Origin: Pigoraptor vietnamica
Lineage: Eukaryota; Opisthokonta; Filasterea
Assembly: GCA_943704525.1 (NCBI GenBank)
Contig: CALSCQ010001081.1
Location: 1 to 26,335, forward strand
Length of the DNA stretch: 26,335 bases
Direction: 5' to 3'
Positions 2,054-19,870 of the stretch are shown here, piece after piece. The notes below the pieces were generated by a model. It ran no database searches. It was not told the origin of the DNA and saw only the letters and a program-made list of their open reading frames with translations. Each line of letters opens with the position of its first letter. The stretch's first letter is position 1. The translations under genes and the position numbers were made by a program.

Positions 2054-5000
2054 CTGAAGGGAGTCAAGGGGAAGGTTATCACACGTGGGGCATGTAAGCG
2101 CACACAGAGGTTAACCAGTTGCGATAGAGCACGCGCAGTCGCCGCAGCAAACGACCAAACAGACACACAAAAGCGTACTCACAAGAGTCGCACGCTTCCA
2201 GCGCATAGGGGAGGCTGTTGCTCGCATAGCAGCCGACGCTCGTGTCGCCCACAAAGTTGTTCGGGCACGCGTCGCACGCGTACGTGTGGTTCGTCATCGT
2301 GCAGGGCGGCGTCGCGCAGTTTTCAATGTCGAGGACGGGCGGGCGCACCGAGAGCAGCTCGACGTGCAAGATCGGAGGGTTGTGCGCGATCGCGGGCGTC
2401 AGCGACTCGTTGCCCATGTTGTAGATGGCCGCCTGGCACCCGAAGCGAACGAGCGGGCAGATGTACCCGCGCAGCGTGAGGGCGTCGCGCACCTTCCACA
2501 TCTGCATCCACGTGCGCATCGTCGTGACCCCCTCTCCTGCCGCCTTGGTCGTGCCTTTGAACGAAACGGACAGCTGTCCCTCCACGGGCGCGCGCGTGAG
2601 AATCGGAACGTTCAGGACGACGATCTCCTCAAAGATTTGCTTCGAGTTGGCGGCGACGTCCGGCACGGCCGCCACGAGCTTGGCGACGGGGTCCGTCCGC
2701 GCGTCCACCGAAAATCGGTCAAAAATGGTGATGCCCTCGCCAATGATGCGGCCGTTGGGGTTCGCGCCGGGGATCCTGAGCTGCGGGTAGCCGGCGTCAA
2801 AGTTGGCGCTCGCAATCACAAAGTACATGAAGCGCTTCGCGAGGCCGCTCGACGACGACGGCGGCAGGAACGCGTCGGTGAACTGCGGGACGGCGCTGTT
2901 CGCAGGGAACTCTGTCGAGCGGTCGCCGTACACGGTCGGGTACGGCTCCTGAGCCGTGATCTGCGTCTCGAGCCACGCGACGTCAAAGTAGTCGCCCGCG
3001 TTCGTCGGGTAGGCGAACGTCGATCCAGAGGGCGGGCTGAGGGCGTTGACAAAATCCAGGTACGCCTTTCCGTCGAGGTTGACGCGCGTGCTCATGATCG
3101 AGGTGACGAGATCGCGCAGCGTCGTCGCGTCCTTGACGGGCAGCGGCACGCGGGGCACGACGGCGCCGTCATACAGCCCCGTCGCAAAGTTGCGAACGAC
3201 AAACACGTCGGCCGGGAAGAGCACCGTGACGCCGTGGATGGGGAGCGAGTACACGGCATCAATGTTGATGGTCTTCCGGAAGTCCATGCGCGACACGCGG
3301 TCCGCGTGGCACGCGGCCGTGGCGTTGACGCTGACGCTCGCGCACGACGGCGGGAACTTGATCTTGGCCTGGATCGCCGACACCGTGATCCACGTCTCGC
3401 CAAAGGGCGACCACGGCGCCGTCGAGCCGCCGACCAGCTGAATGTCCGTGCCGTACGTCCACGAACCCTTGCACTCGAGCATGATGACGTTGGCGCGCTT
3501 GTTGCGGTCAAAGTTGAGGCGCAGGCGGCCCGTCATGATGAAAGACGCGGCGGCGTTCGACACGACGGGGTCCGCCGACGCAATCTCCTTCTTGATCGTT
3601 GCGCGCACGACGAGCCCCGACATGCGGAGCCCGGGCGACACAATGTCAAAGGGAGAGCCCGTGAGGACAATGCTGAGTGGCGTCTCAGACCCGCGCCGTA
3701 CGTCGAGCAGCGGTCCCGCCACGGCCACCTGGAACATGCCGAGAGAGACGGCCGTGTACGACTCCGAGAGCACGGCGAGTTCCTGCAGCAGCCACCCGCG
3801 CAGCGTGCCGACCGTTGAGACGGCAAAGCCCTTGCGCACGCCCTTGTCCACAAAGTCCGCGGACGCCATGACGAGGTCCACGCCACGGTTGGGGAGGGGC
3901 GTGAGGTCAAACGACTTGTCCGCGGGGAACGCCGTCGCCGATCCGAGCCAGAGGAACGACACGAGGCTGGCGATCGAGGTCATCTTGAGGGGGAGATCGG
4001 CGCTCGTCTTGACGTACGACTCGATCGAGTACTTGTTGTTCGCGAGGTCGAGGACGACGCGCGCGAGGCCCTCGACGCGCACGCTGTGGGCGCCCGGCTT
4101 GTCGTAGGGCATGCTGATGGCCGCAATGCCCTTGAACTCAAACTCGTTGATCATGACGTCGCTGTTCGTGTTGAGCGAGCACGACACCTGCGCCGACGAC
4201 AGCGACATCCACGAGCGACCGTAGACGTTCCACGGGAGGGGATCGACGATCGTGCCCTTGAGGTTCGACTCGCCGCCGCCGTTGCGCACGAGCTGCCACG
4301 GCGACTGCTCCACAAAGAACGTCATCGTCCCAAATTCGCGCACGCGCATGGACAGCAGAAAGTTGAGGAACAGCTTCGACGGACGGTTCGAGTCGGCGCC
4401 GTACAGCGCCCCCGCAGGGCTCTGGTCGGCGTCCTGGATCTCAATCACGACGGGACCCGAGGTGATGAGGTCCACGTCCGTGGCTGTGCGGAAAGCGTCC
4501 AGCGGCGTGTTGAGGTTGATGCGGAACCGAGAGCTCGCGACGCGGCTGTAGTTGTACGTGGGCGGCCGCTGTTCGAGGAGGAAGCCGCCCCATATCGACA
4601 GCGCGGGCGCCGCCGGGGCAGACGTCAGCGGCTTGGTCGGGTGCGCGCTGAAGAGGCGGTTGAGCGTGTCGAACGACTGCACGCGGAAGTTGTAGCGGAC
4701 CTTGCCGTAGAGGTTCACGCCTTTCTCGAGGACAGAGTGGTGGAACGTGTCCGAGAACAGGTTGCGAAGCAGGTCCGTGAGGCCGCCGAGCGACGACGAG
4801 AACTTGTCCGTGCTGGTGCCCGTCGCGTCCTTCACGAGAGTCTCTCCAAACAGCGCGCGCGCCTGCGCAATCGTCAGCGAGCACGTCGACACCACCATGG
4901 TCGTCTCGGAGAAGTCAAAGCTGCCGAGCCACGACGTGAAAATGTCCGACGCAGGGAAGGCGTAGTCCGGACGCCAAGGAATGGACATCGGGATGACCGT

Positions 5001-8000
5001 CGTCGGGTCGAGACCCTGCTGTTCGCGAACGACAGTGTCGGGCACCTCGATTACGATGGCCATCTCGCGCGATTCGAACGGCGTGCGCCGCACAAAGAGG
5101 TTGACAGCGACGTTCACCGCCGTCGTAAAGTACATCGTGTCGATGCGCTGCGCCTGTCCACGCACGACCACGCGAGGCGAGAGGGGGTACACGGCATCAA
5201 TCACAGTGACCGTCGGCAACGTGAGCTCGAGTCGGGCGGCAGAGTCCGGAAGCAGCGGCGTCCAGCCCATCTGCGCGGATATCAGCGACTCCATGTCCGC
5301 GCCGCCGTACGCACGCACCGAGGGCCGGTCCACCACAAAGGTGCCCGAGCGCATCCAGCTGTTCGCAATGTCCGCGAGCTCGCGCAGCTTGCTCGTGCGC
5401 ACGTTGACCTTCGTGACGTGCGTCGTCACAAGGCCGCCGTCGTCGGTGATCGTCAGCCGGAGATCAACGAAGCGAGGCGTACCGAAGGCCGGAATGTACT
5501 GCGACACGTCCTGAGAGTGCCCCTCGGGGGGAAGCACATACTGCTGCGTCGTGGGGGTGTCGACGAGCGGGTCGGTCCAAACAGCAACGACCGTGTGCGA
5601 GTCGCCCGCACCTTCGTCGTCCACAGGCACCTTCACGGTGCATGTCGCGCCCTCAAAGCACTCCACCGCAACGGGCGCGGGGACGCGCGCGGGAACGTTG
5701 AAGACGCGGAACAGCGTCGAAGCCGCGCCGTACGAACCCTCACCGTCGCTCACGGTGACTGTTGCGCGGTAGAGGCCGCCCTTGGTGTAGATGTGCGACC
5801 GCGACGCCGACCACGTGCCGGCGTCAATGCCGAGGCGCTCTGCAGAACCGTCGTTCCAATCGATGAGGGCGGTGAACGGCCCGGCCGAGTCGCCGTCGTC
5901 AAAGGAGAATGTCAGCGTCGCCGCGAATCCCTCGTTGGCGCTGATCTCCTCAGGGACGATGACCGTCGGCGACTCCGAGAACGGGCTGCCGGGGCACGCC
6001 GCGCCGCCGCACGCCTTGCTGATGCGGTAGCCCTGGCGGAAGTTATCAATGCCAATCGACAGCTTGCAGAGGAAGGGGAGGAACGTCTCGCACGAGATGA
6101 CAGAGTACGTCCCCACGGCATTGCGCGCGAGGCAGTTGCGCGGGGTGTCGGCGGGGTAGCTCCCGGCGTCCTCGGGACCGGCCGCGGCCACCCACATCTG
6201 CGGAGTGGACCCAATCAGGTTGGCGACGTGCAGGTACTCGTCCGCGTTGAGCACGGCCAGGTCGCCGCCGAGGCCCACGCACGTCGCACGCGCGCGGTCC
6301 TTGGGGAGCCCGGAGCCCGGATTGTTCGGGTCGGTCCGCAACGTATAGCACGAAGCGCCGTACGCGTGCGTGCACACGGACCCGGCAATGATTGCGCGCG
6401 TGTTGCGGCCGAGCACCTCGATCTCGTAGATCGAGTACACAGACTGTGCGCCCTGGGCGCGCATCGTCACCCGAACCTTCGAGCCGCGCGCGTTGGCCGC
6501 CATCGTGTGCTCGCGCACGTGGTCCGTGTTGTACGACACGTTCGCGACGCGCATGTAGCCGCTGTCCGTCAGGATGTCGACGTCGTAGAATGTCGTGGGG
6601 ATGGCCCAGTATATCTTGATCGAGTCGATGGCGTGCGAGTACCCGAGATCAATCTCGACCTGATCGTCCAAGAACGACGAGTGGAGGGCGCTCGCCCAGC
6701 GGCGGCCAAAGTCCGTCTTGACGCCGTCGACGACAAGCGCGCAGCCGTAGTCGGGGCCGTACGTCGACGTGCAGACGACGGGCTTCATCAGCGCCACGTT
6801 GAGCGCATCCTCGGCGCCCGCGCAGTCGCGGCGCACGAACGAGATGTCGTCAAAATAGACCATGCGCCCGGGAGTGGCGGGCGAAGTTGAGTCGTACGAG
6901 ACAGTCCAGCCGCCGATTGCCGAGGCGTCATTCTGGAACGTTTGCGCTGCGGTGCGTAACAATGACGATGTGTCAAGAGCGCATCGCAGATGAACGAGAA
7001 AGTGTTCGAGAACAACGAACATAAGTGAAAACAAGACCGCACCACAACGCCCACAATTGTGCGCGCGAACACAACCACTCGCCAGCAGCTGAACTCGCAC
7101 AATTGCGCGCGCGAACACAACCACTCGCCAGCAGCTGAATTCGCACAATTGCGCGCGCGAACACAACCACAAGCAACTGCACACTACACCCACTGAGGCA
7201 TTGTCCCCATCGCCTGCGCGGCACATAGTCGGGGTCGGTGAAGCACCACGGCGTCGGGTTATCGACCGTCGTGCACGTGTAGTACTTGATTCCCTTGTAC
7301 GAGAACGGGAACACGCACGCCGCGCCGTTCGCGGTGCCGCCGTACGTCACGTCCGTGTAGTAGCGCCACTTCGAGTGGTTCTCCCAAATGGACAGAAGCA
7401 GCATCCCGGCGCCGTCCGCAGCGCTCCCGGCATCAATTGTGATCGACACGCCCCATTCCTTGTGGATGAGGAGGTCGCCGTTGTACCACCGCAGCCGCTG
7501 CCGGTCGTCCGTCGGGTCGCACGCGGCGAGGACCATCCACACCTTCCCGTTGCGCCACGACGCGTCGTAGATGGCCGCCTTGCCCGAGCGCGCAACGCAA
7601 AGGCCCGTGCCGACGCTCCGGAGCAGGGCAAAGTCCTTGTTTCCGTCGCCGTACTCCCACACGAAGCGCTGGTGCGCCTCGGCCGTGTTGCACGTGTACT
7701 GGCGCACGAGCGAGCCGACAGCAGAGCCGCCCTGCGAGCTCATGCACTTGTTCGTGCCCTTGTTCTGGAGCAGGAAGAACGACTCTGCGCGGCGCGTGCC
7801 CGTTCAAGAGCGCGGGGACGAAGGCGAGGTGGTCGGTGTGAGTACAAACCTAAAATGAGAAGGGCAATTAGGCAACGCGCACGCACACGCACGCAACGCA
7901 CCCGTCAGCATGGCAGTGAGGGGAACCGACGCCTTGGACCACTTCGGGTCCGCCGTCGCATTCGAAACAACGTAGTCCGAGAGCATGACGCCGTCGCCCA

Positions 8001-11000
8001 GCTTGCGTCCTAGCGTGTCCACCAGCGACAGCCGCAGCGACGTGCTTGCCGCGGGCACCGGCGTCTTCCCGTCTGGCTCCTCGGCGTAAAAGTACACGTG
8101 CATCTCGTTGTAGCTGCTGGGAGTCGAGGGCGCCGCCACGGAACGCGCCTTCCTCGCGGCCACCTTGGGGGCGCAAATCTCCGCAGCGGCGCAGAGAGCA
8201 CCGCCGCCAACGGAGTGCGATTCACCGACCTCGAGGTCGTTGAACGCGGCGCCGGGACCGACGTCCACGGAGCAGTCCGTGAAGATGGTCGAGTGCGGCA
8301 CGCCGTCAATGTACACGCGGATGCTCTCGCCAAACGAGTCGGTGGGAAGCGCGCCGGCAACAAGGTCCACGAACGAGCCGGTGCCGGGCACGGTCGCGTT
8401 GAACAGCGTCTTCGTGTCGCCGTTCACAATAGAGTAGCTCGTGATGACGAGGGGGACGTAGGCGCTCTCGCCCTTGTACTTGAGCGACATCGCGTTGACG
8501 CCGGCCTTGCACGGCGCGCACGCCGCATCGCCCAGCTCGCCGCCGCCCGTCGAGAAGCCCTCCTTCACCACAAAGTGGCCCCGGCGAGTGCCAACGCCAA
8601 ACGAGTGCGCGCACGTCATGTCCACCATCGCGTCCAGCTTGCCATCGACGAAGAGCGCAACGGCGTGGCCGAGCGTCTTCCCCGGGGCGGCGCGCAGGGC
8701 CACGAGGTCGTTGCCGCCGGGCGTGACCGTGCCCTCAAAGAGCAGGGCGTTGTTGTCCGTGTTCGATGCCGACAGGAAGGCTTCCACCGTCACGGGATCC
8801 GGGCCGCCCGTGTACTGGAACGTCACGTGGGTCACCTCGCCGACGCAGGGCCCGCACGAACCGTCCTTCTTGCAGTCGCTGCCGGCGGCGGAACAGAGGG
8901 GGACGCCCGTGGCCTGGAAGGCGTCGACGACGACAAAGGAGCCCATACGCCAGTTGGGCCCAATCTTGTGCGAGCAGTCCGTGACAATGTCAGAGTCGCG
9001 CTTCCCGTCGACGAAGAACGAGACGAGGTGGCCGAGTACTCGCGACTGCGACGGGTTTGCCGCCACGCGGATGATGTCGTCCGGCTGGACCGTCGCATTG
9101 AACAGCCGGTCCTTGTTGTTCACGTCAATGTCCGTCTGCGAGCCCACACCCGGCAACGCGAGCACCCACGCGCTCTTGGCGCCCTTGTACTGCACAACCA
9201 GCTCCGAGATGCCTTCGCAGTACGTCGTCGGGTCGCACACGACGGGGCACAGCGGGCCGCCGTGGAGAGACTCGCCGTCGACAATCTGGAACATTTCGAG
9301 GTTAAGCGACTTGCCAAACGACGCGTCCGAGCAGCTCGTGTTGATCGTCGTGGCCGGGAAGCCCGTTGGGACGACAAGGAGCGTGTGGCCAAACACCGTG
9401 GCGTTGGCAGACAGCTTGAACTTCCCGTCCGGCGTCGCACACGTGCCGCCGGACTTGCAGAGGGGGTCGACGTCCACAGAGTACGTGTGGCCCTTTTGCG
9501 CATCGTACACGGTGACCGTGGTCGCCTCCGTGCCCTTGTACTGGAGGGTGAGCCACGTGATGCCGCCCGAGCACGCCGAGCACGACAGGTCGCCCATGTA
9601 ACCGCCCTTGTGGAAGAGACCGCCGACGACAGTAAATTCGCCGCGCGAAATACCTCTGCCCTGCGGGTACTCGCAGCCGGTCGGGAAGACAACCGTCCCA
9701 GCGTCCGTCTTGATCGACACCGTGTCACCGATCACGGACCCGGCGGCAACCGACAGCGGCGCAATCCAGACGACGTCGTTCGTCTTGAGGGCGGCGTTGT
9801 TGAACAGAAGGTTGGACGCCCCCTGCGTCACGGTGATGCTCGAAGAACCGGCGCCAGTGTACTTGAGGGCAAGTCGCTCGATGCCGTACACGCACGAGCC
9901 CACCGACAACGGGCACACGCGGCCGCCCTGCAGCGAGTACGTCTCGGGTTCCATAACCAGCATGGCGAGCGACGAAAACGCGGCCGACGAGGGGATGTCG
10001 GCGGCTTGCACAGGCGCAACGTGCGGATCAGAACAGTCAAGGTTGAACGTTTGGAACGCGACGGGGACGATGGTGGCCACGTATCGAGCCTCGAGCGTGC
10101 CGAAGACGGCGCCCGCGGGGGCCTGGATGGCGATCCTGCCCTGGGGCGGCAGGTTGTACGCCGTGCCCAGCGAAGCGGCCGTGTCGGGATTGTACATCGT
10201 GAGCGGCGTGCCGGAGTCCGTCGGGTTCACAAACTGCAGCTGCTGGATCGTCTGCGCGCCGGCGTTGCGCAGCACGAGCCGCGAGATGCCGCCCCGGCAC
10301 TTGTCGCACGGCGCGCTGCAGAGCGGCCCGCCGCGGACAGAGTACACCTTGTCCACAGTGAACGACGTGAGAATGCCGAGGCGGTAGTCCGTCCCGATGG
10401 TGCTGTTGCACGAGAGGTCGATGACGTCCTCGGTCGCGCCAATGACCATGCCCCCGGCAACTTCGTCGGGCGTCGGGCAGTGCGGCGCCGAGGGATTCGC
10501 AGGTGTGCCGTCCGCATTCACGTTGCAAAAAGCGGCGTTGGTGCAGTCGCACACCCACACCTTGCCGACGAGGGGAACCGCGTTCGATCCAGAGTCGATG
10601 AGGACGGTGGCACCCGTGGCGAAGAAGGTGCTGGGACTGGTGCCAATGTTGATGCTGTAAAGGTTGTTGGCCACTTTGAGCTTGTACGTCGTCGAGCGCA
10701 CCACAATTTTCCGCGCCGGCCCGCCGTTCGTGATCGTCAGGCGCGTTACGCCGCCCGCGCACGCCTGGCACGTGAGCGGGCACATCTTGCCGCCGTCGAC
10801 CGAATACGCGTCAACGACCTCCCAATCGCCCACGCGAAGGCCGGGCCCGAACGCAACCAAACAGCTCGCGTCAAACGTCGCCGTGCCGTACGACCCGAAC
10901 GTGACGTTGAAAAATCGGCCAAACGTCGGCGTCAGCGCGTCGCGGCTAACGCGGAGCGTCGTGCCGAAGGACGCCGAGACGTAGATCGTGTCCGCGGTGG

Positions 11001-14000
11001 TAAACACCTTCGCGTTGTCCTGGTAGAGGACCTCGCCAGCCGCCGACGTCACAGTCAGCGGCGCCGCAGGCCGACCGCTCAGCGCGCCAATGTACTTCAG
11101 AGTCACCGTGGTCACGCCCCCGCGGCAGGGGCCGCAGTTGAGGAAAGACTTCGGAGTCGCGGCCACGCCAGTGTTCACGACCGTTGCGTTGGGCGGCGGG
11201 GCAGTCGCGCGCATGTAGGGTCCGCTCGGCGACACGTCCGGACGCTGCATGACGGACATTGCGCCGCGCGCGGGCTCAAACGAGAGCGACGTGGAGCCGT
11301 GGAGCTTCTTGTTCGAGGCCCGTGACACCCACGCCGCGGGGACGGGCGCAAAGCCCGATGCGAGCCCGTCGTCAAAGACGCGGAGGGGAGGGTCGGCGTG
11401 GCCGCAGCACTCTGTCCCGGGGAGTGAGCAGCGCCCGCACCGGTCCCGCACGAGGCCCGAGTAAGGCACGTTGTCGCAGCCGTAGCACGAAGCGCGCACG
11501 AAGCGAATGTCATCGAAGTGGACCGTCGTCGTGTCGTTGACGGCCGATGTGCCCTCGCGAGCCTCAATCACGACGGTGAACGTGCGCGCGCGGTAGAACG
11601 ACACGGGCACGCTGAGGATGTCCAGGCCAAAGTCGAGGAGGGGAATGGCCACGCGCACCCATTGCTGGGCGGGAAGACCGCCGCGCGCGGCGCTCAGATA
11701 GGGCGCCAGGTCAAAGGGGCCCGCCAGCGAACCGTCGACGTACGCCGATATCTGCAGCAGCTGGCCGCCGGCGTCCATGCCGCGCACCTTGAACTCGAGG
11801 GCGTCGTAGAGGTAAGGGTTCGGGAACGCAGAGTCGCCGCGCGCCGAGATCACGAGGTACTGCGTCGGATTCACGACCATGGAGATGACCTTGTTCCCGG
11901 GGGGCGTCGCGTCCGGGACCGTCAGCAAGACGCCGGCGCTGCTGAGCGAGGCGGAGAAGCCCGCGGCGAACGCGTCGTCGTAGATGATCGATGGACTCAC
12001 GTTCTCGCACAGCTTGTCGCTGGGAAGGTACGTGATGCCGGGGGACGTGATCGTGCGCGTCAGGCCGGCGTTGTTGGTCGCGCGGAGGCTCACGTGGTAC
12101 GTCGAAAACGGCGACAGCGAGAGTCCGCGCGCGACGGCGCCCGTCGGGAATCCGCCCTGCGAAGCACGACGCGCCGAGAGCGAAAAGTCCTCCCATCCTT
12201 GAATGTCCGACGCCCGCGGAGTGGACCCGAGCGCCCACTGCATCGCGTAGATGCCAGTGTTGGGGCTCTTGGGGCTGCCCCACGAACCGTAGAGTGCGTC
12301 ACCGACAAACTGGACGTCCGCCTGCACGTGCGCTCCGTGCGTGCTCGTCTTGACGCCGTCCATCAAAAAGCCCATGTTAGGCCGCGTGCGGACAAGCGTC
12401 ACGGGGTCCGACACGCGGTCGTGGTACATCCCGTTGGCGGCGACGCAGCGCACCGTCACGCGGTAGGTAAAAGAAGTGCTCAGCGTCGTCGGCAGGTCCA
12501 CGCGCGTCGAATTGATGCTCGCCGCCGCGATGGCGCGGTTCAGGGCATAATCGTGCGTGAGCACGCCGTGCTCTTTCGTCGAGGTCACCGCCACCGCCCA
12601 GTCGCTCGCATGGCGAGTGCCGAGCGTCGAGCTGTACTGCTGCGAGTCCACAACGTGCACGAGGGGCGGCCGAAGGGACACCCACGGCGCAACATCGGCC
12701 GCGCCGGCCGCAGTGCCGACAGCGAGCTGCACGTCGACGATGGGCGTGTTCGAGTCGACGCACGCGGCAAACTGAATGTTGAGCGGGCCGGGCACCTGGC
12801 TCAGCGACGGGATTTTGAAGTACGGGTGCACCAGATCGACCGTGTCGCGCGTCGCCTGCAGCGGTGCCGTCCTGTCGAGCTGGATGCCGTTGGACACAGC
12901 GACGGCGCTGGCCACGCCCTTGTCGTCCTTGGCACGCACGCTGACGAAGAGGACGGGGCTGAACTTCGTGTCGTCGTACATGGCATTGAAGGCAGTGTTG
13001 CCCTCAAGGTTCGCGCACGCCGACGTCTGGACACGCGAGACGGCCGTGAAGCCCTGCAGAGCCGTCGGGTCGGCCTTGGTGCCGATGGCCCACTCGTAGC
13101 CGTCCACCTGCACGACGGCGTTCGTGTAGTCCGCGGGGAACGCCGGGGTCGTGAACGCCTCCCAGCTGGCGCACAGCACAAGCGAGTTCTGGAAGTCAAT
13201 GTCGACGCCGTAGACGGGCCCGTCAAACACGCGGCCGGGGCGGATGTTCGTCGACGTCCACTGGTCGCACGCGGCACCAGTCCACCCGGCATTGCACGTG
13301 CACGTCTGGTTGGCCGTGCAAGATCCCCGCCCGTTGCAGTTGCCGACCGTCGAGCAGTCCGGGAGTTCGCACGCGAACCCTGCGTAGCCGTTGTCGCAAA
13401 CGCATTCTCCGGGGAGTGCGGCCGAGCACTTTGTCCCGCGGCCATTGCAAGGCGTGCGGCAGTCGATCTCGCAGCGGGAGCCCGAAAAGCCGGCGTTGCA
13501 CGTGCACACGTTGGGGTTCGCGGGGTCGCACACTGTCCCCTTGTTGTTGCAGAAGGCCTTGCAGTCGTACTCGCAGTTCGGGCCGGTGATCCCGTCGTCG
13601 CACACGCACTGACCGGGCGACTTTGGGCTGCAGACCGAGCCCTTCCCGTTGCACGGCGCGCGGCAGTCAATCTCGCACGCCTGGCCGCCGTAGCCGGCAC
13701 TGCACTGGCATGTGGTGCTGACGCACGTGCCGTGACCGTTGCAGTCGAGCGGACAGAGCGTCGTCGTCCCGCAGCGCTGGCCGTCAAGGACAAACGAGCG
13801 CACCGCCGTATTCGGGTCCGGAAGAGCGCCTGCCGAGCGCGCAACAAACGTAAACTGGATGCTGCCCCCGTCGGCAATGTCCTTGCAGTCGGTGCCGGGC
13901 TCCACAAAGACGTAGCGTCCGGACACCGGGCGGTACGCCGCCGGGTAAATGTCCTTCACGGGGCACAGAGACCGCTGCTCGTACGAGGCGGCGAGCGTGA

Positions 14001-17000
14001 CGACAAAGCGGCCAGCGACGTAGCCGGGACCAAAGCCGGTCTGGCAGCCCGTCGGGATGGAGGCCTCAAACACGTCGTTGACGTAAAGCGAGACGGAAGG
14101 GCCGAGAGAATTGCCCGGGACGGCGCCCGCGTCAATGTTGGCAAAGCCGCCCGGCAGAACGAAGTTCGAGTACGCCACCGCGCCCGTCTTGTCGTGGACG
14201 ACGCGCAGGCGCACCTCTTCAGCGCCCTCGTTGCGCAAGGACATCGAGCTCACCATGCCGGGGTGCGTCACGTTGCGGTCGCGCGCGGGCGCGGGGCACG
14301 GCACGCACGCAATCGGGTCCTCGGCACCGCTGTCAAGGAAGAGGCCGTCGAGGGCCTTGTCCGGGTTGATGAGATCCGGCACGCGGTCGAGAATGTAGTA
14401 CGACAGCGCCGGGCCCCGCCTGTAGGTGCGGCCGTACGACACCTGGAGCCCAGAGAGCTGCTCGACGAAGAAGCCGTCGACGAGCTCGTACTCGAGCAGC
14501 CAGTCCGCAAGCGGGCCGTACGTGTTGGCCGACGTGACCGTGATCTTGCCCGTGAAGCGGTTCGCGAAGAGGTCCACCGCCTCAAATTTGTACTGGCATC
14601 CGCGCGGGCGCCGGCACGAGCCATCGTCGACGTCCGCCGACGGGTCGTAATTGGCCGCCCACGGCTTGGTGCAGCCGGCAATTCCGTCGCACTTGGAGCC
14701 GTCGTGCGCGTTCGCCGCGGGATTGTAGCGGAGATCGAGCGGGTTCATGCACCCGATCACCTTCGCGCGACACGAGCCGTCGTTGACCGTGGCAGAGGCG
14801 TTGTAGTTGACGGCGCCCTTGTCCGTACACCCGAGCACAATCGGAACGCAGCTCCCGTCGTCCGTGTTGGCGCGAGGATCAAAGTTCACGGCCGAGGGGT
14901 CCGTGCAGCCGTACGTCCGCAGCACGTACACGCACGAGCCGTCGTTCGCGTTCGCGTTTTTGTTGTAATTGTACGCAGCCGGATCGGTGCACCCGGCGAC
15001 GGGATTGACATTGTAGTCGCGCGCAAACGTCGGGGCGATGCAGCAGCCGGTCCCGACCGTGTCCTTGGGCTGGCACGGGGCCGCAGTCGAGATGCCCAAG
15101 AATTCGGCGCTCACGTTGAAGTTGGCGGCAAAGGGGTTCGAGCAGAGGGGAACGGCAACCTCGCACGACCCGTCGTCCACGGTCGCGAGCGGGTTGTAGC
15201 TATCCGCGTATATGTTGGTGCATCCGTAGATAAACGCGGTCGCTGCGAGTCATGAGGAGAGGAGCAGTGAGCGGTGATTCCAAGCCGCATCGCAAAAAAA
15301 GGGAGTCTCGGCGCTCTCGTGCATGCATCCGGGCACAATACGAATCTCTGACGAAAAACACGCGAACTCACCGACAGTGATGGGCACCGAGGCATACGAC
15401 AGGGTTGTCGCCGCATTCCCGCTCGTCTGCACCAGCGCCAGCGTTAGCGTGTACGTGCCGCGCTTCGGCAGCAGGTTCGCCGCCTCGATACTCGTGGGCG
15501 CGTCGGTCGTGAGCGGGGCAGTCTTGACGACGTTACCATCCACGAAAAGTCGCAACTCCGTGTTCGTCAATGGGTCCATGGTACCGGCGGCGTACGAGTA
15601 CCCGTCGAGCGAGAACTGGACGACAACGCGTACCGTGTTGTCGTTCGTCTTGACAAAAGTCTGGCCGGGCAGCGGGTACGTGATGCGGACCGACGGCTGC
15701 ATCACCGTCACAGCGATAGAGTCCATCGCGACAAAATGATCGGTATCGATGAAGGTGCGCACGTCCACGGCGACCTGGACTTGGGTGGCCGAGGGGGAGA
15801 ACACGCGCTCAAAGTACCCCTTCTTTCCGGTGCCGTCCGACACGAAGGGGACTTGCACCGCGGGCGCGGAATCGAGCGCGCAGTACACGAGGTTCGGGGG
15901 AACGTCAATGTACGTCACGCTGTACGAGAAGCGGACGCGCGCCTCCGTGGCGTTGCTGGGAATAAGCACGACGGAGCGCGACGCGGGACTCAGGATTTTC
16001 ACAGCCGGCGTATCGGTACCTGCAAGCGACGGAGATCAGAAGGTCGGCAAATGTGCGCGGAAAGGGAAAAGGTCACAGAGCCGAGGGCATGAAGGTGAGG
16101 CAGCATCACACGCGCTGCGGGAAGCGCCGATTGCACAGGCAGAGCGCGCGCACGCAAAAGACACCCACACACGCCCTTGTCGCACTGGGATCCGTAGCAC
16201 GACTCGATGCGGAATCCGCTGCCGCCGAGGCGGACGAGGACCGCGCAGTTGGCACCGACGCACTTGCCGCTGTTCATGACAGTGTAGGGCGTGCGCATCA
16301 GGCGCGTCCCGTCCAGCACAGTGTCCCACACCGCGTCGTCCAGCGAGCCCTCGTTGCGGACGCACTGGCGCGTGTCTGTGAGGTGGGGCGACAAGTAAGC
16401 AAATTGAAGCCGTCACACGAAAATTCAAGCGACCGCGCGCGCCCGCACGAACACATGCGACAGGAGCGCACGTACACACGAGCACGCTCTATCTATTAAA
16501 TGCAAACGCACAAACGCAACAAACGCGCAACATCACAAGACACACGCGCACAGGCACATGCCTTCGGCGATGGAGAAGTATGTCACGTTCCACCCGTCGC
16601 GATACGTCGCCGCGTCCGTCTCGAAAACAAGCGTGAGCGCGTTTCCGCTCGAGCGAACAAACGTGTTTGGGGCGAGCGCGCCGTTCGCAACGACCTGCGG
16701 GACTGTCGAGGCAATAGTGCTGGTGCTTCCACAGCCCGCCATGCAGCCGATTTGGGTCGACCCGGTGGACGGCCCGTCGTAGATGCACAGGCGGTCGTTC
16801 CACACGGCGCCGTTGCGCTCCGTGCAGAACGAGTCAAATTCCAACAGGATAAGCGTGTGATTGGGGCGTTGGATGCGGAAGACGCTGAGAGTGTTCGGCG
16901 GGTAGTGTCCGTCCGCATCGACGGGATTGCTAAACCACCCGGTGCTGTCCGTCAAGACAGTTTCTGCGGACAGCAAGAAAGAGGTCGCGTTAGCGGCGAA

Positions 17001-18825
17001 CGATGGCGCAGCACGCACACGCAAGCGAGGAGGCATGCACATCGACGTGCACAGAGTGGGTCTTCCGTCTCACCGTTCAGAGTCGTTCGCGCCGTGCTCT
17101 CGAAGGATGCGAGGAAGCGGATGGTGCACGACGAGCCCGCGGGGACCCTCGCCGTCACAAACCACGTGTCGAGGTTCGCGGCAGGCGCCCACCAGAAGAG
17201 CGAGACACCCTTCGTCACGTCCAGCTGCGCGGTCGAAGAAAACGAGAACAGGCCGACGTCGCGCCGGTAGTAACGGTCGGCCGTCGACACAACCTTCTCG
17301 CGAAGGTAGCCGTCGGGATTGCAGGATCCGCTGACCAGGCCGAGGGCAAACTGGGCGACAGTGCAATGTGAGCGCGAGTGCATGTCGACTCGAGTGGGAC
17401 GGAGAGCCTCATAGACTGAGCTTGCGCAAAGAAATCACTCTCCCTCTAAATCCTGCACGCAGACCTCAATGTACGTGTGGGAGGGCGTTGGCATGTGTGT
17501 GTGAGCGAGTGTGATATGAGAATGCCCTCGGATGGATACTCACGCTGAGCTTCGTGCCCTTGTCCCAGTTCACCTGGCACGTCTGCCAAGTGTCCCCGCC
17601 CGTTGACGTGACGAGAATGTCCTGAGGCACGCCGTTCGTGAGCACGCACTGCGTCGTCCCGTTCACGATGGGCGCTGCGCAACACGCAAGGAGGAAAGGG
17701 ATGCATCAGCACAGCCGCCGCCGTCACACGCAAACCAGCGACTCTCGATCCTGCAAGAGAGTGACAACTCGCACAAAGACAACTTCTGTTTGCTGCGTGC
17801 GCACTCTCTGTGCCTGCGCAGCGAGAACTGTCTGTTCGTGCGCGTGCGCCAAGAAACCGCAGCACGGACCTTCCCGGAAACCGATCGCCTGCACTTCGGC
17901 GATGCGAAGGGCGCCCTGTCCGATGCGCTGCACGAGAATGTACCGAGCGCCAGACACGGCCTCGCCCAGCCAAGATCCCCACGAGTACGTCACGGCCGGT
18001 GTCGAAAACGTCTGCGACGCCAGCTCGGCGCCGTTCTCCGCGAAGAGCGACAGCTTGAACGGGACATTGCCCGCCATGCATGCGTCCTTCGTGCACGACT
18101 GGCAGCAGCCGACGTCGTTGATCCCAAATACCGTCACGCGGCGCACCGTGCACGGAGAGCCAAGGTCCACGCGCCACCACGGGTTCGTCTCAAACGCGGT
18201 GACCGCCATGCTGCCGCCCTTCACCGTCTGGTCGCTGATGCCGTCGACGGCGAGCATCGCATTCGCATTGCCCACAGTGCTCGACTGAGTCGCGGTGCGT
18301 CGAAGGGCCACGTTGGATGCTGCGAGTGCGCGTGCAGGTCAGAACGCAGCACGTACGCCATCCTAATCTGCCCGAACAAGAACGGCACCCACTGGTCTGG
18401 TCCCACGGCGCCGAGAACGTCTGGCACGCGTCCGCGAACATGGCGGCGTCGTACTTCTGGAAAGCGGCGTCCTGGCTCGACAGGTCCGGGGCGTTCCAAT
18501 AGCAAGGGTAAATGTTGACCTGGTTGGTCGCCTTGCAGCAGTCATACGCTGCCTGGGGCGATGTCAGCGCATCTGCCGTGCGAGAGGCGATTTGGTGAGC
18601 AGATTGTCGCAGCTCGTGGATACGCGGCGAGTCGGACATTGTACAGCACAGCGACAGTGGCAAACCGATTGATAATCGCGAATAAAAAATAGCCACACCC
18701 TCCCACGCTACAGGCACTTCGGGCCACTCACTGCATTCGTAACACTGCGTGCTCGCCGCATCCGCCTGCGCAGCAAGCACGTTCACCGCCGCGAGCACGG
18801 CGAGGAGCGCCTGGAGGCGCCCCAT
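786..18825 (-). CDS. Giant secreted multidomain lectin/adhesion protein, 15 exons, about 5,352 aa
   Basis: Exons in transcript order: 18825-18732, 18572-18393, 18319-17870, 17674-17544, 17350-17074, 16963-16544, 16375-16169, 16019-15372, 15242-7902, 7784-7194, 6946-2183, 2053-1923, 1840-1723, 1618-1292, 1165-786. All 14 introns are GT-AG; 12 are phase 1 and the two phase-0 introns (after exons 4 and 12) each divide one 1-1 block. Summed length is 16,059 nt, a multiple of three. The start MGRLQALLAVLAAVNVLAAQ is a clear signal peptide; no transmembrane segment or GPI signal is seen, so the product is probably secreted or matrix-bound. Several carbohydrate-binding folds (F-type lectin, cysteine-rich beta-trefoil, C-type lectin) with CUB, EGF, PKD and Ig-like modules suggest adhesion, prey capture or extracellular matrix. 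I know no single family with this order. Least certain junctions: the donors of exon 6 (GTGTCT) and exon 12 (GTCTTG). Confidence 0.82.
2330..5395 (-). other. Unrecognised ~1,020-residue beta-rich region
   Basis: It runs from SKLRELADIANSWMRSG to about DIENCATPPCTM. It is almost free of cysteine, rich in alternating hydrophobic strands and has no motif I recognise. Recurrent elements hint at internal repeats: WNVYGRSWMSLSSAQV and WSPFGETWITVSAIQA; MASADFVDKG and VIASANFDAG; VIDAVYPLSPRVVVRG and NIDAVYSLPIHGVTV. It sits between PKD domains and EGF-like modules, where REJ-like regions occur in polycystin relatives, but I see neither REJ nor GPS motifs. Confidence 0.6.
6062..6380 (-). other. C-type lectin-like domain
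   Basis: About 105 residues from CTHAYGASCYTL to FLPFLCKL. Visible landmarks are the opening SCY, the helix-like RARATCVGLGGDLAVLNADEY (the classical A-x-x-x-C-x-x-x-G-G-x-L-A-x-(L/I) motif), QMWVAAAGPEDAG in place of WIGL, NCLARN, and the closing SCETFLPFLCK (FxC-x). No EPN, QPD or WND triad is apparent, so calcium-dependent sugar binding is doubtful; the fold itself is well supported. Confidence 0.82.
7052..7170. repeat. 46-bp tandem repeat, about 2.6 copies, in intron 10
   Basis: Units begin at 7052, 7098 and 7144 (plus-strand coordinates), each starting cacaattg and containing cgcgcgaacacaaccac. The first two complete units differ at only a few bases, and the third stops after about 27 bases. 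The repeat occupies half of the 247-nt intron 10 (6947-7193), the longest in the gene, immediately downstream of the CysR-FN2 exon in transcript sense. The 46-bp period is not a multiple of three, which fits non-coding status. Confidence 0.85.
7194..7784 (-). other. Exon 10: mannose-receptor-type cysteine-rich (ricin B) domain plus fibronectin type II domain
   Basis: A 591-nt symmetric phase 1-1 exon. The first ~143 residues form a beta-trefoil: SFFLLQNKGTNKCM, QRFVWEYGDG, LLRSVGTGLCVA, VLAACDP, QRLRWYNGDLL, and MLLLSIWENHSKWRYY. The remaining ~50 residues are a textbook FN2 domain: ANGAACVFPFSYKG, YYTCTT, PWCFT, RRRWGQC, with all four cysteines. The same two domains in the same order open the mannose receptor/PLA2R/DEC-205 family, and the sequence pattern (LCxG/A, AC-D, Q-x-x-x-W, ANGAxCxFPF) matches closely. 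The exon sits between two halves of a sandwich domain. Confidence 0.88.
8180..11145 (-). repeat. Eight tandem ~100-155-aa Cys-bounded beta repeats
   Basis: Eight diverged units follow a common pattern: C-x2-C-x-GG-(V/I)-x3-(L/M)-x-(L/I)-x-Y-x-G, a loop, LF-(N/E)-x-(T/A)-V, a Gly-rich strand ending VDGK or similar, DCS-x3-GPG-x3-G, FVV, then GGxLC. Approximate limits: 11145-10775, 10780-10318, 10317-9910, 9909-9588, 9590-9245, 9245-8893, 8892-8530, 8530-8180. A ninth, more degenerate copy lies upstream at about 14310-13960. They resemble a domain of unknown function found in bacterial (planctomycete and Bacteroidetes) surface proteins with a GK-x-x-x-LT-(L/M)-x-YTG start (the DUF7467 type as I recall it), but I cannot confirm the match. 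Probable beta-sandwich spacers. Confidence 0.7.
11488..11990 (-). other. Carbohydrate-binding-like beta-sandwich, intact copy
   Basis: About 165 residues from NVSPSIIYDD to HFDDIRFVRASC. The pattern, an opening IxYDD, a middle QQWVRVAIPLLDFG, and a final xVHFDDIxFV strand, is typical of galactose-binding-like/CBM sandwiches appended to secreted enzymes and lectins. A second copy of the same domain lies split between the end of exon 9 (KWSKASVPLTAML) and the start of exon 11 (MVYFDDISFVRRDC). Confidence 0.6.
12000..13245 (-). other. Three FN3-like domains of the WAIGT type
   Basis: Three domains of about 110-150 residues share an early strand with EWAIGTKAD, QLAVGTAAG or QWALGSTPR, then a D-(I/V/L)-x-x-(W/F) motif, and a late strand with VSVRAKDDKGVAS, VTVRCVAANGM or VSLRATNNAGLTR, followed by a DRTAP- or RTRP-like linker. 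This matches a class of fibronectin type III-like extracellular domains common in metazoan and bacterial surface proteins. Role: structural spacing or protein binding. Confidence 0.6.
13258..13765 (-). other. Five tandem EGF-like domains (tenascin/teneurin type)
   Basis: Five units of about 30-35 residues follow one another with the spacing of tenascin-type EGF repeats, for example CNGHGTC, CQCSAGYGGQACE, then CNGKGSVC, CVCDDGITGPNCE, then CNNKGTVC, CTCNAGFSGSRCE, CNGRGTKC, CVCDNGYAGFACE, and CNGRGSC, CTCNAGWTGAACD. The linker EIDCR recurs between units, which indicates local duplication. Such arrays form extended rods. No calcium-binding EGF consensus (D-x-D/N-E) is seen. Confidence 0.92.
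14610..15242 (-). repeat. Exon 9 start: tandem DDGSC repeats (GCTDPxAxNY type)
   Basis: The first part of the 7.3-kb exon encodes about eight copies (six clear, two degenerate) of a 20-30-residue motif: GCTDPxAxNY, a few residues, then (D/N)DGSC. Examples are GCTDPAAYNYN...NDGSC and GCTDPSAVNFDP...DDGSC. This repeat is well known from surface and secreted proteins of marine bacteria (especially Bacteroidetes) and from some algae and protists. The conserved Asp/Asn pattern suggests calcium-binding loops, held by one disulfide per repeat. Confidence 0.85.
15372..16019 (-). other. Exon 8: two tandem Ig-like beta-sandwich domains
   Basis: This 648-nt phase 1-1 exon (residues about 587-803) carries two halves of roughly 105 residues. 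Each begins with a V-(K/R)-I-x-x-P strand (VKILSPAS and VRITYPLPG), has a central hydrophobic strand (VRFSYSV and VRVVVQFSLDG) and ends in an alternating hydrophobic strand before the next unit. This is the pattern of bacterial-type Ig-like or cadherin-like folds that act as spacers in surface proteins. Superfamily assignment is moderate; the exact family is not. Confidence 0.55.
16169..16375 (-). other. Exon 7: short Cys-containing module
   Basis: A symmetric 207-nt exon encodes about 69 residues with RQCVRNEGS, a central LMRTPYTVMNSGKCVGANC stretch and a final ESCYGSQCDKG. There are six cysteines. I do not recognise a family; it is small, disulfide-rich and probably extracellular. Intron 7 that follows is 149 nt. 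Confidence 0.55.
16544..16963 (-). other. Exon 6: CUB domain
   Basis: Residues about 378-518 show the CUB signature: GWFSNP, YPPNTLSVFRI, LILLEFDSF, then WNDRLCIYDG, and SSGNALTLVFETD followed by YRDGWNVTYF. CUB domains are about 110-residue jelly rolls in extracellular and developmental proteins, often binding calcium and partner proteins. The acceptor (ctgtccgcag) is strong. The donor that best keeps frame is GTGTCT at 16543, which is weak, so the last few residues are uncertain. Phase 1-1. Confidence 0.85.
17074..17674 (-). other. Exons 4-5: unrecognised extracellular module
   Basis: Exon 4 (17674-17544) enters in phase 1 and leaves in phase 0 at GTGAGT; exon 5 (17350-17074) enters in phase 0 and leaves in phase 1. 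Together they form one 1-1 block of about 136 residues. It starts PIVNGTTQCVLTNG and contains two widely spaced cysteines, SGSCNPDGY and SSCTIRFLASFE. The predicted character is mixed beta. I chose the acceptor before FALGLVSGS because it has the best pyrimidine tract and keeps phase 0. No family recognised. Confidence 0.6.
17870..18319 (-). other. Exon 3: F-type lectin / F5/8C-like domain
   Basis: This symmetric phase 1-1 exon encodes about residues 93-242. It opens NVALRRTATQSST, followed by AMLAVDG, then NPWWRVDLGS, VRRVTVFGI and a closing strand ILVQRIGQGALRIAEVQAIG. This is the fucolectin/tachylectin-4 (FTP) pattern: NVAxxxxATQSS, then AVDG, then WWxVDLG. Such domains bind fucose or other glycans with a jelly-roll fold. 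The His usually found before the WWRVDLG motif is not at its normal place, so sugar specificity cannot be assumed. Confidence 0.85.
18393..18825 (-). other. Exons 1-2: signal peptide and small Cys-rich module
   Basis: Exon 1 (18825-18732) gives a hydrophobic signal peptide, then QCYEC, and ends with a perfect GTGAGT donor in phase 1. Exon 2 (18572-18393, phase 1-1, 59 codons plus the split ones) contains the pattern DCCKATN, PCYWNAP and FADACQTF. I do not recognise the domain. It resembles weakly the segment in the last exon (SLCRDTSN, YCVYNAT, FDSCMLQTQTF), so the protein may start and end with related small modules. Intron 1 is 159 nt and intron 2 is 73 nt. Confidence 0.7.
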
Positions 18826-19870
18826 GTCTCACACGCGCCGACGGCGCCGCAGTCGAAGTAGATGCCCTCGCGATCACACAGTCGCCATTGCCCTCGCAAA
18901 CGCCAGTGTGCAGAATACCAACGGGAACAAGCACAGAGTACACCAGTATGTGCGGCGGAGAATAGTTTTCTCGGATGATGCGGGGGTCACTCTTGGCGAA
19001 AGTGCCTCTGCGGCGAATTGGAAACAAAGCCGTCGCGTGTGCGCAGCCCCTCAAACAGACACAGCGGGTGGCGGCTTTTCCATTGTGCCCCATGTGCATC
19101 CGGGGTGTATGAGGCAAAATATATACATATATAGATTGTCCGGGAACGCCCAAGTAACTAAACATAGAGTTAAAGGTGAATGTTATCTTTATATGGCATA
19201 GTTGGACGTGTCTGTCTCACTTCCGATTGGTCCTCGTGAACCTCTCCTTTCAATGCTCCTATATAAAGATTTATTCAACCCACTGTTATACAAATATGGT
19301 CATTGACTGATTGAATTTGTTACGCTGATTGTTACGCTGTCCCGAGCTCTCGCTGAGTTTATTTGTTTAGTCGTTGCCGTGGCACCGAATGAAAATATTG
19401 GACACATTTCAAATTTCAGTGGGCAGGACTCTTAATTATACTTATTGCTCTACAATTCAGCGTGATTTATATTACACGTAAGCACTTTTTTCTATAATAA
19501 TTAAAATGACAATAAGAATCAAATTGTACTGATTTTATCATATAGAATGTAGTGCGCATTTATGATACACATTACCCGGACAACTTACCCATTGGAATTT
19601 GAGGTGTGCGCCTTCTCCACTCTCTCTCCCCTTCCCGCTCGTCCATGTCCCCCGGGAGCACCGTCACCCGCTCCGTCTCTCTCAGCTGACGAACTTGTTT
19701 TCGCGCTCTCTTTGTCTTGCTTTTGTTCATCTCTTCTTCAATCGTTCATCGCACTTCGCCCTTAGCAGTGTAGCTCTAGCACTCGTGTGAGCGCACGTTG
19801 GCTTGATCGCAGCCGCACTTGGGATTGCCGTGTGCTGCTTGGGCGGCGCGGCGAACTTGCCGACCGGCCG
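18826..19870. promoter_or_regulatory. Head-to-head intergenic region of the two large genes
   Basis: This 1,045-bp region separates the ATG of the giant lectin gene (18825, minus) from the ATG of the VWA gene (19871, plus), so both promoters should lie here. Next to the VWA gene, 19586-19760 is strongly pyrimidine-rich (ctctctctccccttcc-like runs) with an ATTGG box at 19591, typical of a TATA-less promoter or 5' UTR. The middle is occupied by an AT-rich transposon-like segment. No conserved gene is seen in this region. Confidence 0.5.
19132..19587. mobile_element. Putative AT-rich MITE-like element with TA flanks
   Basis: The segment 19134-19585 (452 bp) stands out by low GC in a very GC-rich neighbourhood. 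Its ends carry a short inverted repeat: left ga-ttgtccggg (19134-19144) and right cccggacaa-ct (19575-19585). Each is flanked directly by TA (19132-19133 and 19586-19587), the target duplication of Tc1/mariner/pogo-type transposons. There is no transposase frame, so it would be non-autonomous. The inverted repeat is only 9 perfect bases plus a swapped pair, so other copies in the genome are needed to confirm it. Confidence 0.4.

What the first reader, a model, noticed from the sequence alone, without database searches (positions are those of the whole stretch)
6826..8115. A symmetric cassette exon splits a beta-sandwich domain; skipping would rejoin it
The end of exon 9 (VYFYAEEPDG ... KWSKASVPLTAML) and the start of exon 11 (QTFQND ... 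MVYFDDISFVRRDC) look like the two halves of the domain that is present intact at 11990-11488 (QQWVRVAIPLLDFG ... VHFDDIRFVRASC). Exon 10 lies exactly between the halves, is phase 1-1 and 591 nt long. Exon 9's last G plus exon 11's first CG make an Ala codon, so skipping keeps frame. This looks like an exon insertion into a domain, with possible alternative splicing between an intact sandwich form and a lectin-bearing form.
Basis: partly seen in the sequence, partly recalled or inferred. Interest (0 to 1): 0.78.

Follow-up and report, generated by a model that had tools for sequence, protein, structure and literature searches.

The report
Lectin exon inside split CBM8-like domain
In a large secreted-looking protein of an unidentified eukaryote, one exon carrying a mannose-receptor-like lectin pair sits inside a carbohydrate-binding-type fold that is already interrupted by eight repeats, so the split is real, but a switch by exon skipping is unproven and would not make the fold continuous.

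Summary
The anatomy is confirmed. On the minus strand exon 9 ends at 7902, intron 9 is 7901-7785, exon 10 is 7784-7194 (591 nt, phase 1-1), intron 10 is 7193-6947 and exon 11 starts at 6946; inclusion and skipping both keep frame. Exon 10 is a ricin-B plus fibronectin-II pair, aligning over its whole length to C-type mannose receptor 2. The flanks belong to a sandwich domain like carbohydrate-binding module family 8 (CBM8), reached through bacterial relatives and the Dictyostelium structure 7t7y.

The N-terminal part lies at 11385-11221, cut off by an in-exon insertion of eight repeats with linkers (1,034 codons). The three parts joined read as a full CBM8 (hhalign 82%; best of 300 shuffles 2.6%; 22% with exon 10 kept). 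Skipping exon 10 therefore cannot give a continuous sandwich.

Phase 1 is the best placement at 12 of 13 junctions of this gene, so symmetry is no evidence for a cassette. Best reading: a fold tolerating nested loop insertions, exon 10 acquired by class 1-1 exon shuffling and normally included. No RNA evidence was available; skipping is untested.

The parts
11485..11997 (-). Intact CBM8-like sandwich copy (171 aa), without insertion
   Evidence: hmmsearch with the profile of 37 bacterial domains 33.2 bits; hhalign 97% against bacterial+DdCBM8 profile
11221..11385 (-). Part A: N-terminal part of the split CBM8-like domain (VFDDGLASGF...SPSG)
   Evidence: model positions 2-39 in a scan of exons 9-11 (profile includes the intact copy); hhalign 37% alone, 82% joined with B and C
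8119..11220 (-). Insertion 1: linker, eight cysteine-bearing repeat units (11136-8173), linker; 1,034 codons inside exon 9
   Evidence: unit borders set by eye and located, alignment; 2 of 8 units weakly match DUF7467, best E 0.013
7902..8118 (-). Part B: middle part of the split domain, end of exon 9
   Evidence: model positions 94-114; no significant match to the intact copy on its own
7785..7901 (-). Intron 9, 117 nt, GTGCGT...CGCAG, phase 1; retention meets a TGA at 7806-7804
7850..7855 (-). Acceptor-like TTTTAG inside intron 9, with a CTAAT motif before it; its use adds 65 nt and shifts the frame
   Evidence: sequence; function not tested
7194..7784 (-). Exon 10 (insertion 2), 591 nt, phase 1-1: ricin-B lectin (about 7776-7405) plus fibronectin type II (about 7317-7198)
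   Evidence: Pfam; phmmer match of residues 2-195 to C-type mannose receptor 2, E 3.1e-5; coding score
6947..7193 (-). Intron 10, 247 nt, GTGGGT...CGCAG, phase 1, with a 46-nt tandem repeat (2.6 copies, 97% matches) at 7052-7170; retention meets a stop at 6975-6973
6822..6946 (-). Part C: C-terminal part of the split domain, start of exon 11 (...VYFDDISFVRRDC)
   Evidence: 0 of 2000 shuffles reach its score against the intact copy; model positions 131-141

Best explanation
This is one CBM8-like beta-sandwich, encoded in three pieces, that carries two insertions in two loops. Insertion 1 is an array of eight repeats just before the stretch YNEMHVYFY. Insertion 2 is a mannose-receptor-like ricin-B/fibronectin-II pair, encoded by exon 10, after the stretch WSKASVPL. 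Shown by sequence: the order of the parts, the reading frames, the domain identities of exon 10, and the positions of the insertions on the family alignment. Inferred: that the three parts pack as one sandwich; that it acts as a scaffold holding the inserted modules out from its loops; that exon 10 came in by recombination between phase 1 introns (class 1-1 exon shuffling); and that exon 10 is normally included in the mature mRNA. Because the fold already accommodates insertion 1, inclusion of exon 10 need not break it, and no switch between isoforms is required. The split copy has lost the ligand-contact residues known from Dictyostelium CBM8, so I expect scaffolding rather than cellulose binding.
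For: Bacterial relatives were found from the window's own sequences: 3 of 384 pattern matches. A profile of three bacterial domains hits 7t7y, E 6.6e-16, which PMC9079177 describes as DdCBM8, a sandwich of 11 strands. Against bacterial domains plus DdCBM8, without window sequence, the three parts joined give hhalign 82% over columns 2-140; the best of 300 piece-shuffles is 2.6%; A+B 44, B+C 25, A 37, B 2, C 23; with exon 10 kept 22%. HMMER with the bacterial profile: 8.6 bits joined, 0 of 3000 shuffles reach it. In a scan of exons 9-11 with a profile that includes the intact copy, A, B and C are three of the five best places outside the intact copy, at model positions 2-39, 94-114 and 131-141. 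Both insertion points fall between strand-like stretches on the alignment, near DdCBM8 residues 613 and 676, and outside the strands of the model of the intact copy (residues 61 and 126). Exon 10 is coding. Phase 1 is the best placement at 12 of 13 junctions and the only frame-compatible phase at 6 of 13. Discoidin-like and CUB matches lie in two other exons for which both introns place best in phase 1, one of them (intron 6) with a poor score.
Against: Each part alone is weak, and B alone has no signal against the intact copy. When only C is shuffled, 90 of 2000 shuffles still reach the joined score with the bacterial profile (16 of 2000 with the intact copy in the profile); A only 2 and 2, B only 7 and 8. 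Other windows of the same protein in place of A, B or C reach it in 12 of 3724, 20 of 3679 and 145 of 3772 cases (7, 11 and 35 with the intact copy in the profile); among the top five shown some overlap A or C, none overlaps B. An unrelated stretch (4688-4517) scores 3.8, above A at 3.5, and another ties with C at 1.2. Pfam lists no family for the intact copy; for the joined copy only a sub-threshold DUF1737 at E 0.13. The model of the intact copy has low confidence (pLDDT 55) and no Foldseek match at E 0.001 or below; 7t7y is eighth and virus capsid proteins are among its neighbours. The joined protein itself was not folded. The low T content before the intron 9 acceptor could favour skipping.
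Confidence: 0.66

Rival explanations
1. Regulated cassette exon: exon 10 is skipped in some transcripts, giving a form without the lectin pair, whose sandwich is still interrupted by the repeats.
For: Skipping keeps frame. Of 10 introns measured, intron 9 has the lowest T content before its acceptor (0.16; the others 0.22-0.38), and a TTTTAG lies 65 nt upstream.
Against: Symmetry is the rule in this gene. By C+T content the intron 9 acceptor region is not the lowest. No RNA evidence. The abstract of PMC6142364 reports that only bilaterians have significantly raised exon skipping and that enrichment of frame-preserving skipping is a feature of animals; the window's compact GC-rich genes do not look like a typical animal's (my judgement; composition).
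Confidence: 0.18
2. Splicing switch by competing acceptors in intron 9: use of TTTTAG at 7850 gives a 65-nt longer exon with a shifted frame and an early stop, which would turn the gene down.
For: TTTTAG is preceded by pyrimidines and a CTAAT motif; 65 nt shift the frame, and exon 10 read in the shifted frame meets a stop early.
Against: Branch-point and acceptor preferences of this organism are unknown. The 65 nt have no coding signal in the frame that would be read (-1.15 bits per codon), as expected of an intron.
Confidence: 0.08
3. The parts are not one domain: A and B-C are independent degraded CBM8-like remnants next to unrelated modules, and no three-part sandwich forms.
For: Weak single-part scores; replacement windows sometimes score as well; ligand residues lost.
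Against: Successive, non-overlapping model positions and full coverage when joined; on the alignment B and C meet between two strand-like stretches without a missing piece.
Confidence: 0.2
4. Assembly or sequencing artefact: a base error in intron 9 hides a longer exon 10, or exon 10 is misplaced.
For: One frame of the last 65 nt of intron 9 has G+C at third positions of 0.86 and no stop, and is one base out of step with exon 10.
Against: That frame scores only -0.01 bits per codon, and it would need both a base error before exon 10 and a donor of another phase in exon 9. Both introns have GT-AG borders.
Confidence: 0.04

Closest known systems
Carbohydrate-binding module family 8 (DdCBM8 of Dictyostelium CelA, PDB 7t7y/7t7z)
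   Same: Related by profile; the intact copy and the three-part copy cover the whole model
   Different: Ligand residues W572, W574, Y600, Q686 are V, A, R, S in the split copy and S, S, Y, E in the intact copy; no glucanase domain was found in the pieces scanned; two large insertions
Mannose receptor family (C-type mannose receptor 2 and relatives): CysR ricin-B domain, fibronectin type II, C-type lectin domains
   Same: Exon 10 matches the CysR-FN2 pair from end to end; a weak C-type-lectin-like stretch follows further on (Lectin_C E 0.26, below its cut-off)
   Different: The pair is inserted in a sandwich domain; the sandwich's last part and a discoidin-like domain come before the lectin-like stretch; no row of C-type lectin domains was detected in the pieces scanned
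Class 1-1 module shuffling of animal extracellular proteins (PMC8001218, passages seen)
   Same: Extracellular-type modules bounded by phase 1 introns
Domain gain by exon insertion into an intron (PMC2926785, passages seen)
   Same: A middle exon with symmetric phases, as in 28 of 49 middle gains by novel exons there
   Different: 40 of 49 intronic gains there were coded by several exons; here by one, and within another domain

Membership tests
CBM8 | Full-length profile match to characterised members | tested here: met
   bacterial profile to 7t7y E 6.6e-16; intact copy 97%, joined split copy 82% in hhalign against bacterial+DdCBM8 profile
CBM8 | Ligand-binding residues W572, W574, Y600 and Q686 of DdCBM8 | tested here: not met
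   V, A, R, S in the split copy; S, S, Y, E in the intact copy. I therefore call it CBM8-like, not a member with the family's function
CBM8 | Beta-sandwich of the CBM8/CBM11 kind | tested here: inconclusive
   low-confidence model of the intact copy; CBM11 first and 7t7y eighth in Foldseek, none at E 0.001 or below
CBM8 | Binding to insoluble cellulose or glucomannan | not testable with these tools
   needs a protein assay
Mannose receptor CysR-FN2 pair | Ricin-B trefoil followed directly by FN2 | tested here: met
   Pfam; residues 2-195 matched to 5e4k, 5ao5 and 5ao6, E 3.1e-5 to 4.8e-5
Mannose receptor family | FN2 followed by several C-type lectin domains | tested here: not met
   one sub-threshold Lectin_C match only in exon 11, after the sandwich end and a discoidin-like domain
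Class 1-1 exon shuffling | Domain-bearing exon bounded by phase 1 introns | tested here: met
   exon 10, and exons holding a discoidin-like and a CUB match, by best-scoring placement; the history itself was not tested
Alternatively spliced cassette exon | Transcripts with and without the exon | not testable with these tools
   no RNA data

The most novel reading that the evidence does not exclude
Class 1-1 exon shuffling, described in print as practically restricted to animals, worked in a non-animal eukaryote and placed a ready-made mannose-receptor CysR-FN2 module not between domains but inside a folded sandwich that also holds a nested repeat array; the sandwich became a two-loop display scaffold, with exon 10 possibly optional.
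Probability: 0.4. Interest if true: 0.75.

Novelty: new variant of a known kind. Interest (0 to 1): 0.52.

Why it matters
Nested domain insertions and class 1-1 shuffling are both known kinds. Here a module bounded by phase 1 introns sits inside another domain that already holds a second, larger insertion. If the host is not an animal, as its compact GC-rich genes suggest to me (no call identifies it), the case bears on a question printed in PMC8001218: why exon shuffling should be restricted to Metazoa. It also offers a direct test of how much a CBM8-like sandwich can carry in its loops.

Tried and rejected
Embleya plasmid match to the joined domain (E 0.1): it lies in a different frame from the annotated hypothetical protein there, and that protein gives no match to the joined domain; taken as chance. 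The same search at E up to 10 gave 28 records, none covering 80% of the query; not used. Intact domain against plasmids: no match.

Viral contig scans for the intact domain, the two-row alignment, exon 10 and the bacterial alignment found no relatives.

The eight-repeat alignment matched 0 of 101 genomes and no solved structure at E below 0.35; without a positive control the first shows little.

Extending exon 10 upstream to 7849 was considered and rejected: the frame that would be read has no coding signal, and the frame that leads into exon 10 holds a stop.

Exon 10 folded alone gave a useless model (pLDDT 32.8) and was not searched. C-type lectin stretch: one search used a wrong frame and is void; replace it.

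NCBIfam gave nothing for exons 9 and 10 and one far sub-threshold match in exon 11.

Papers: searches (listings). PMC9079177: abstract and passages. PMC8001218: passages. PMC2926785: passages. PMC6142364: abstract and outline. I made no search worded for a CBM8 interrupted by a lectin exon, so I do not claim it is absent from print.
Full report
Anatomy. The gene runs on the minus strand. Exon 9 ends at 7902 with codon ACG plus G. Intron 9 is 7901-7785 (117 nt), exon 10 is 7784-7194 (591 nt), intron 10 is 7193-6947 (247 nt), and exon 11 starts at 6946 with CG. With exon 10 the frame is open; without it G plus CG makes Ala and the frame is open too. In its frame exon 10 resembles exons 9 and 11 in codon use (0.57 bits per codon, G+C3 0.90, no stop); its other frames are negative.

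What exon 10 is. Pfam gives Ricin_B_lectin at E 1.6e-8 and fn2 at E 9.8e-12. Against solved structures the FN2 part hits gelatinases and fibronectin (best E 6.7e-17), and residues 2-195 of 196 align with residues 15-200 of a C-type mannose receptor 2 chain (5e4k, E 3.1e-5). So exon 10 is a complete CysR-FN2 pair.

What the sandwich is. Pfam lists no family for the intact copy, and only a sub-threshold DUF1737 (E 0.13) for the joined copy. A two-row alignment of the intact copy and the joined copy found three bacterial relatives in genome contigs among 384 pattern matches; one of them shows CBM_11 below its cut-off. A profile of three bacterial domains hits PDB 7t7y at E 6.6e-16. The abstract and passages of PMC9079177 describe it as DdCBM8 from Dictyostelium CelA, a sandwich of 11 strands, with binding residues W572, W574, Y600 and Q686. 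Two further searches gave matches in 16 of 151 and 17 of 145 genomes, many of the latter partial and weak. From the loci I took 70 strong near-full-length domain matches, 37 of them unique strings; near-duplicates and truncated copies were left in.

Three parts, not two. Against the intact copy alone, part C is significant (0 of 2000 shuffles), part A marginal (56 of 2000) and part B not (921 of 2000); B+C joined 1 of 2000, A+B+C 0 of 2000. With the 37-domain profile the three parts joined score 8.6 bits, and 0 of 3000 piece-shuffles reach that. Shuffling A only, B only or C only, 2, 7 and 90 of 2000 reach it. Replacing A, B or C by other windows of the same protein reaches it in 12 of 3724, 20 of 3679 and 145 of 3772 cases. 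With the intact copy added to the profile the joined score is 12.3 bits (0 of 3000), and the corresponding counts are 2, 8 and 16 of 2000, and 7, 11 and 35 windows. hhalign against bacterial domains plus DdCBM8, without window sequence, gives 82% over columns 2-140 for A+B+C; A+B 44, B+C 25, A 37, B 2, C 23, and 22% if exon 10 is left in; the best of 300 shuffles is 2.6%. With the intact copy in the profile A+B+C is 95%, B+C 88, C alone 88, and 45% with exon 10; shuffles at most 4.0%.

Where the insertions lie. On an alignment with DdCBM8 and the bacterial domains the first insertion falls near residue 613, just before YNNIEFDI (YNEMHVYFY here), and exon 10 near residue 676, between WTKIKASF and GIWIQ. 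The low-confidence model of the intact copy (pLDDT 55, pTM 0.59) has strands at 64-72, 113-119 and 141-148; the matching points, residues 61 and 126, lie outside them. Foldseek puts CBM11 first and DdCBM8 eighth, with no match at E 0.001 or below.

Insertion 1. Between A and B lie 1,034 codons: a linker, eight units with paired cysteines at 11136-8173, and a linker. Two of eight units weakly resemble DUF7467 (best E 0.013). The stretch is open and inside exon 9.

What skipping would do. Since the domain already holds insertion 1, inclusion of exon 10 is compatible with a folded sandwich.

Symmetry. I placed the best GT-AG pair at 13 junctions of the gene, with anchor peptides chosen by eye: 12 are phase 1, one (intron 4) phase 0. 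At 6 of 13 (introns 2, 3, 5, 7, 8, 11) every frame-compatible pair is phase 1; introns 1 and 6 are poorly placed; introns 9 and 10 are best in phase 1 but not forced. Discoidin-like and CUB matches lie in two other exons for which both introns place best in phase 1. So 1-1 symmetry is the gene's habit. It fits exon shuffling and says nothing for a cassette. PMC8001218 calls exon shuffling practically restricted to animal evolution (passages); PMC2926785 counts 28 of 49 middle gains by novel exons with symmetric phases (passages).

Splicing hints. Of 10 introns measured, intron 9 has the lowest T content before its acceptor (0.16; others 0.22-0.38), though three others have lower C+T. A TTTTAG ending at 7850 lies 65 nt upstream of the acceptor; its use shifts the frame into an early stop. 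Retention of either intron meets a stop. These keep a regulated exon possible. [quoted passage not shown]

Function. The split copy keeps none of the four DdCBM8 residues named above and the intact copy keeps one, Y600. I infer a scaffold that presents inserted modules. That CysR domains bind sulphated sugars and FN2 domains bind collagen or gelatin is recalled, not from a call. The signal-peptide-like start of the protein near 18825 is read by eye.

Verdict.

Noticed in passing
window 7052-7170: Intron 10 carries a 46-nt tandem repeat, 2.6 copies, 97% matches; intron 10 is the longest of the 10 introns measured.
   Followed up: no
window 8173-11136: Eight units of 104-154 aa with paired cysteines; two weakly match DUF7467. 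A similar-looking unit lies further upstream in exon 9 (by eye).
   Followed up: partly
window 12600-15249: Upstream exon 9 holds repeats of the type GCTDPxAxNYDPxANxDDGSC (by eye) and teneurin-like EGF repeats.
   Followed up: no
window 16533-18338: CUB and discoidin-like (F5/8 C) matches lie in exons for which both introns place best in phase 1, intron 6 poorly.
   Followed up: partly
window 19766-23785: Plus-strand neighbour gene with three von Willebrand A-like stretches (VWA_3 E 2.1e-42) and a sub-threshold DUF4537 match; its introns do not look all phase 1 (by eye).
   Followed up: partly
window 2082-5717: About 1,200 residues of exon 11 after the PKD-like stretch for which Pfam lists no family.
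   Followed up: no
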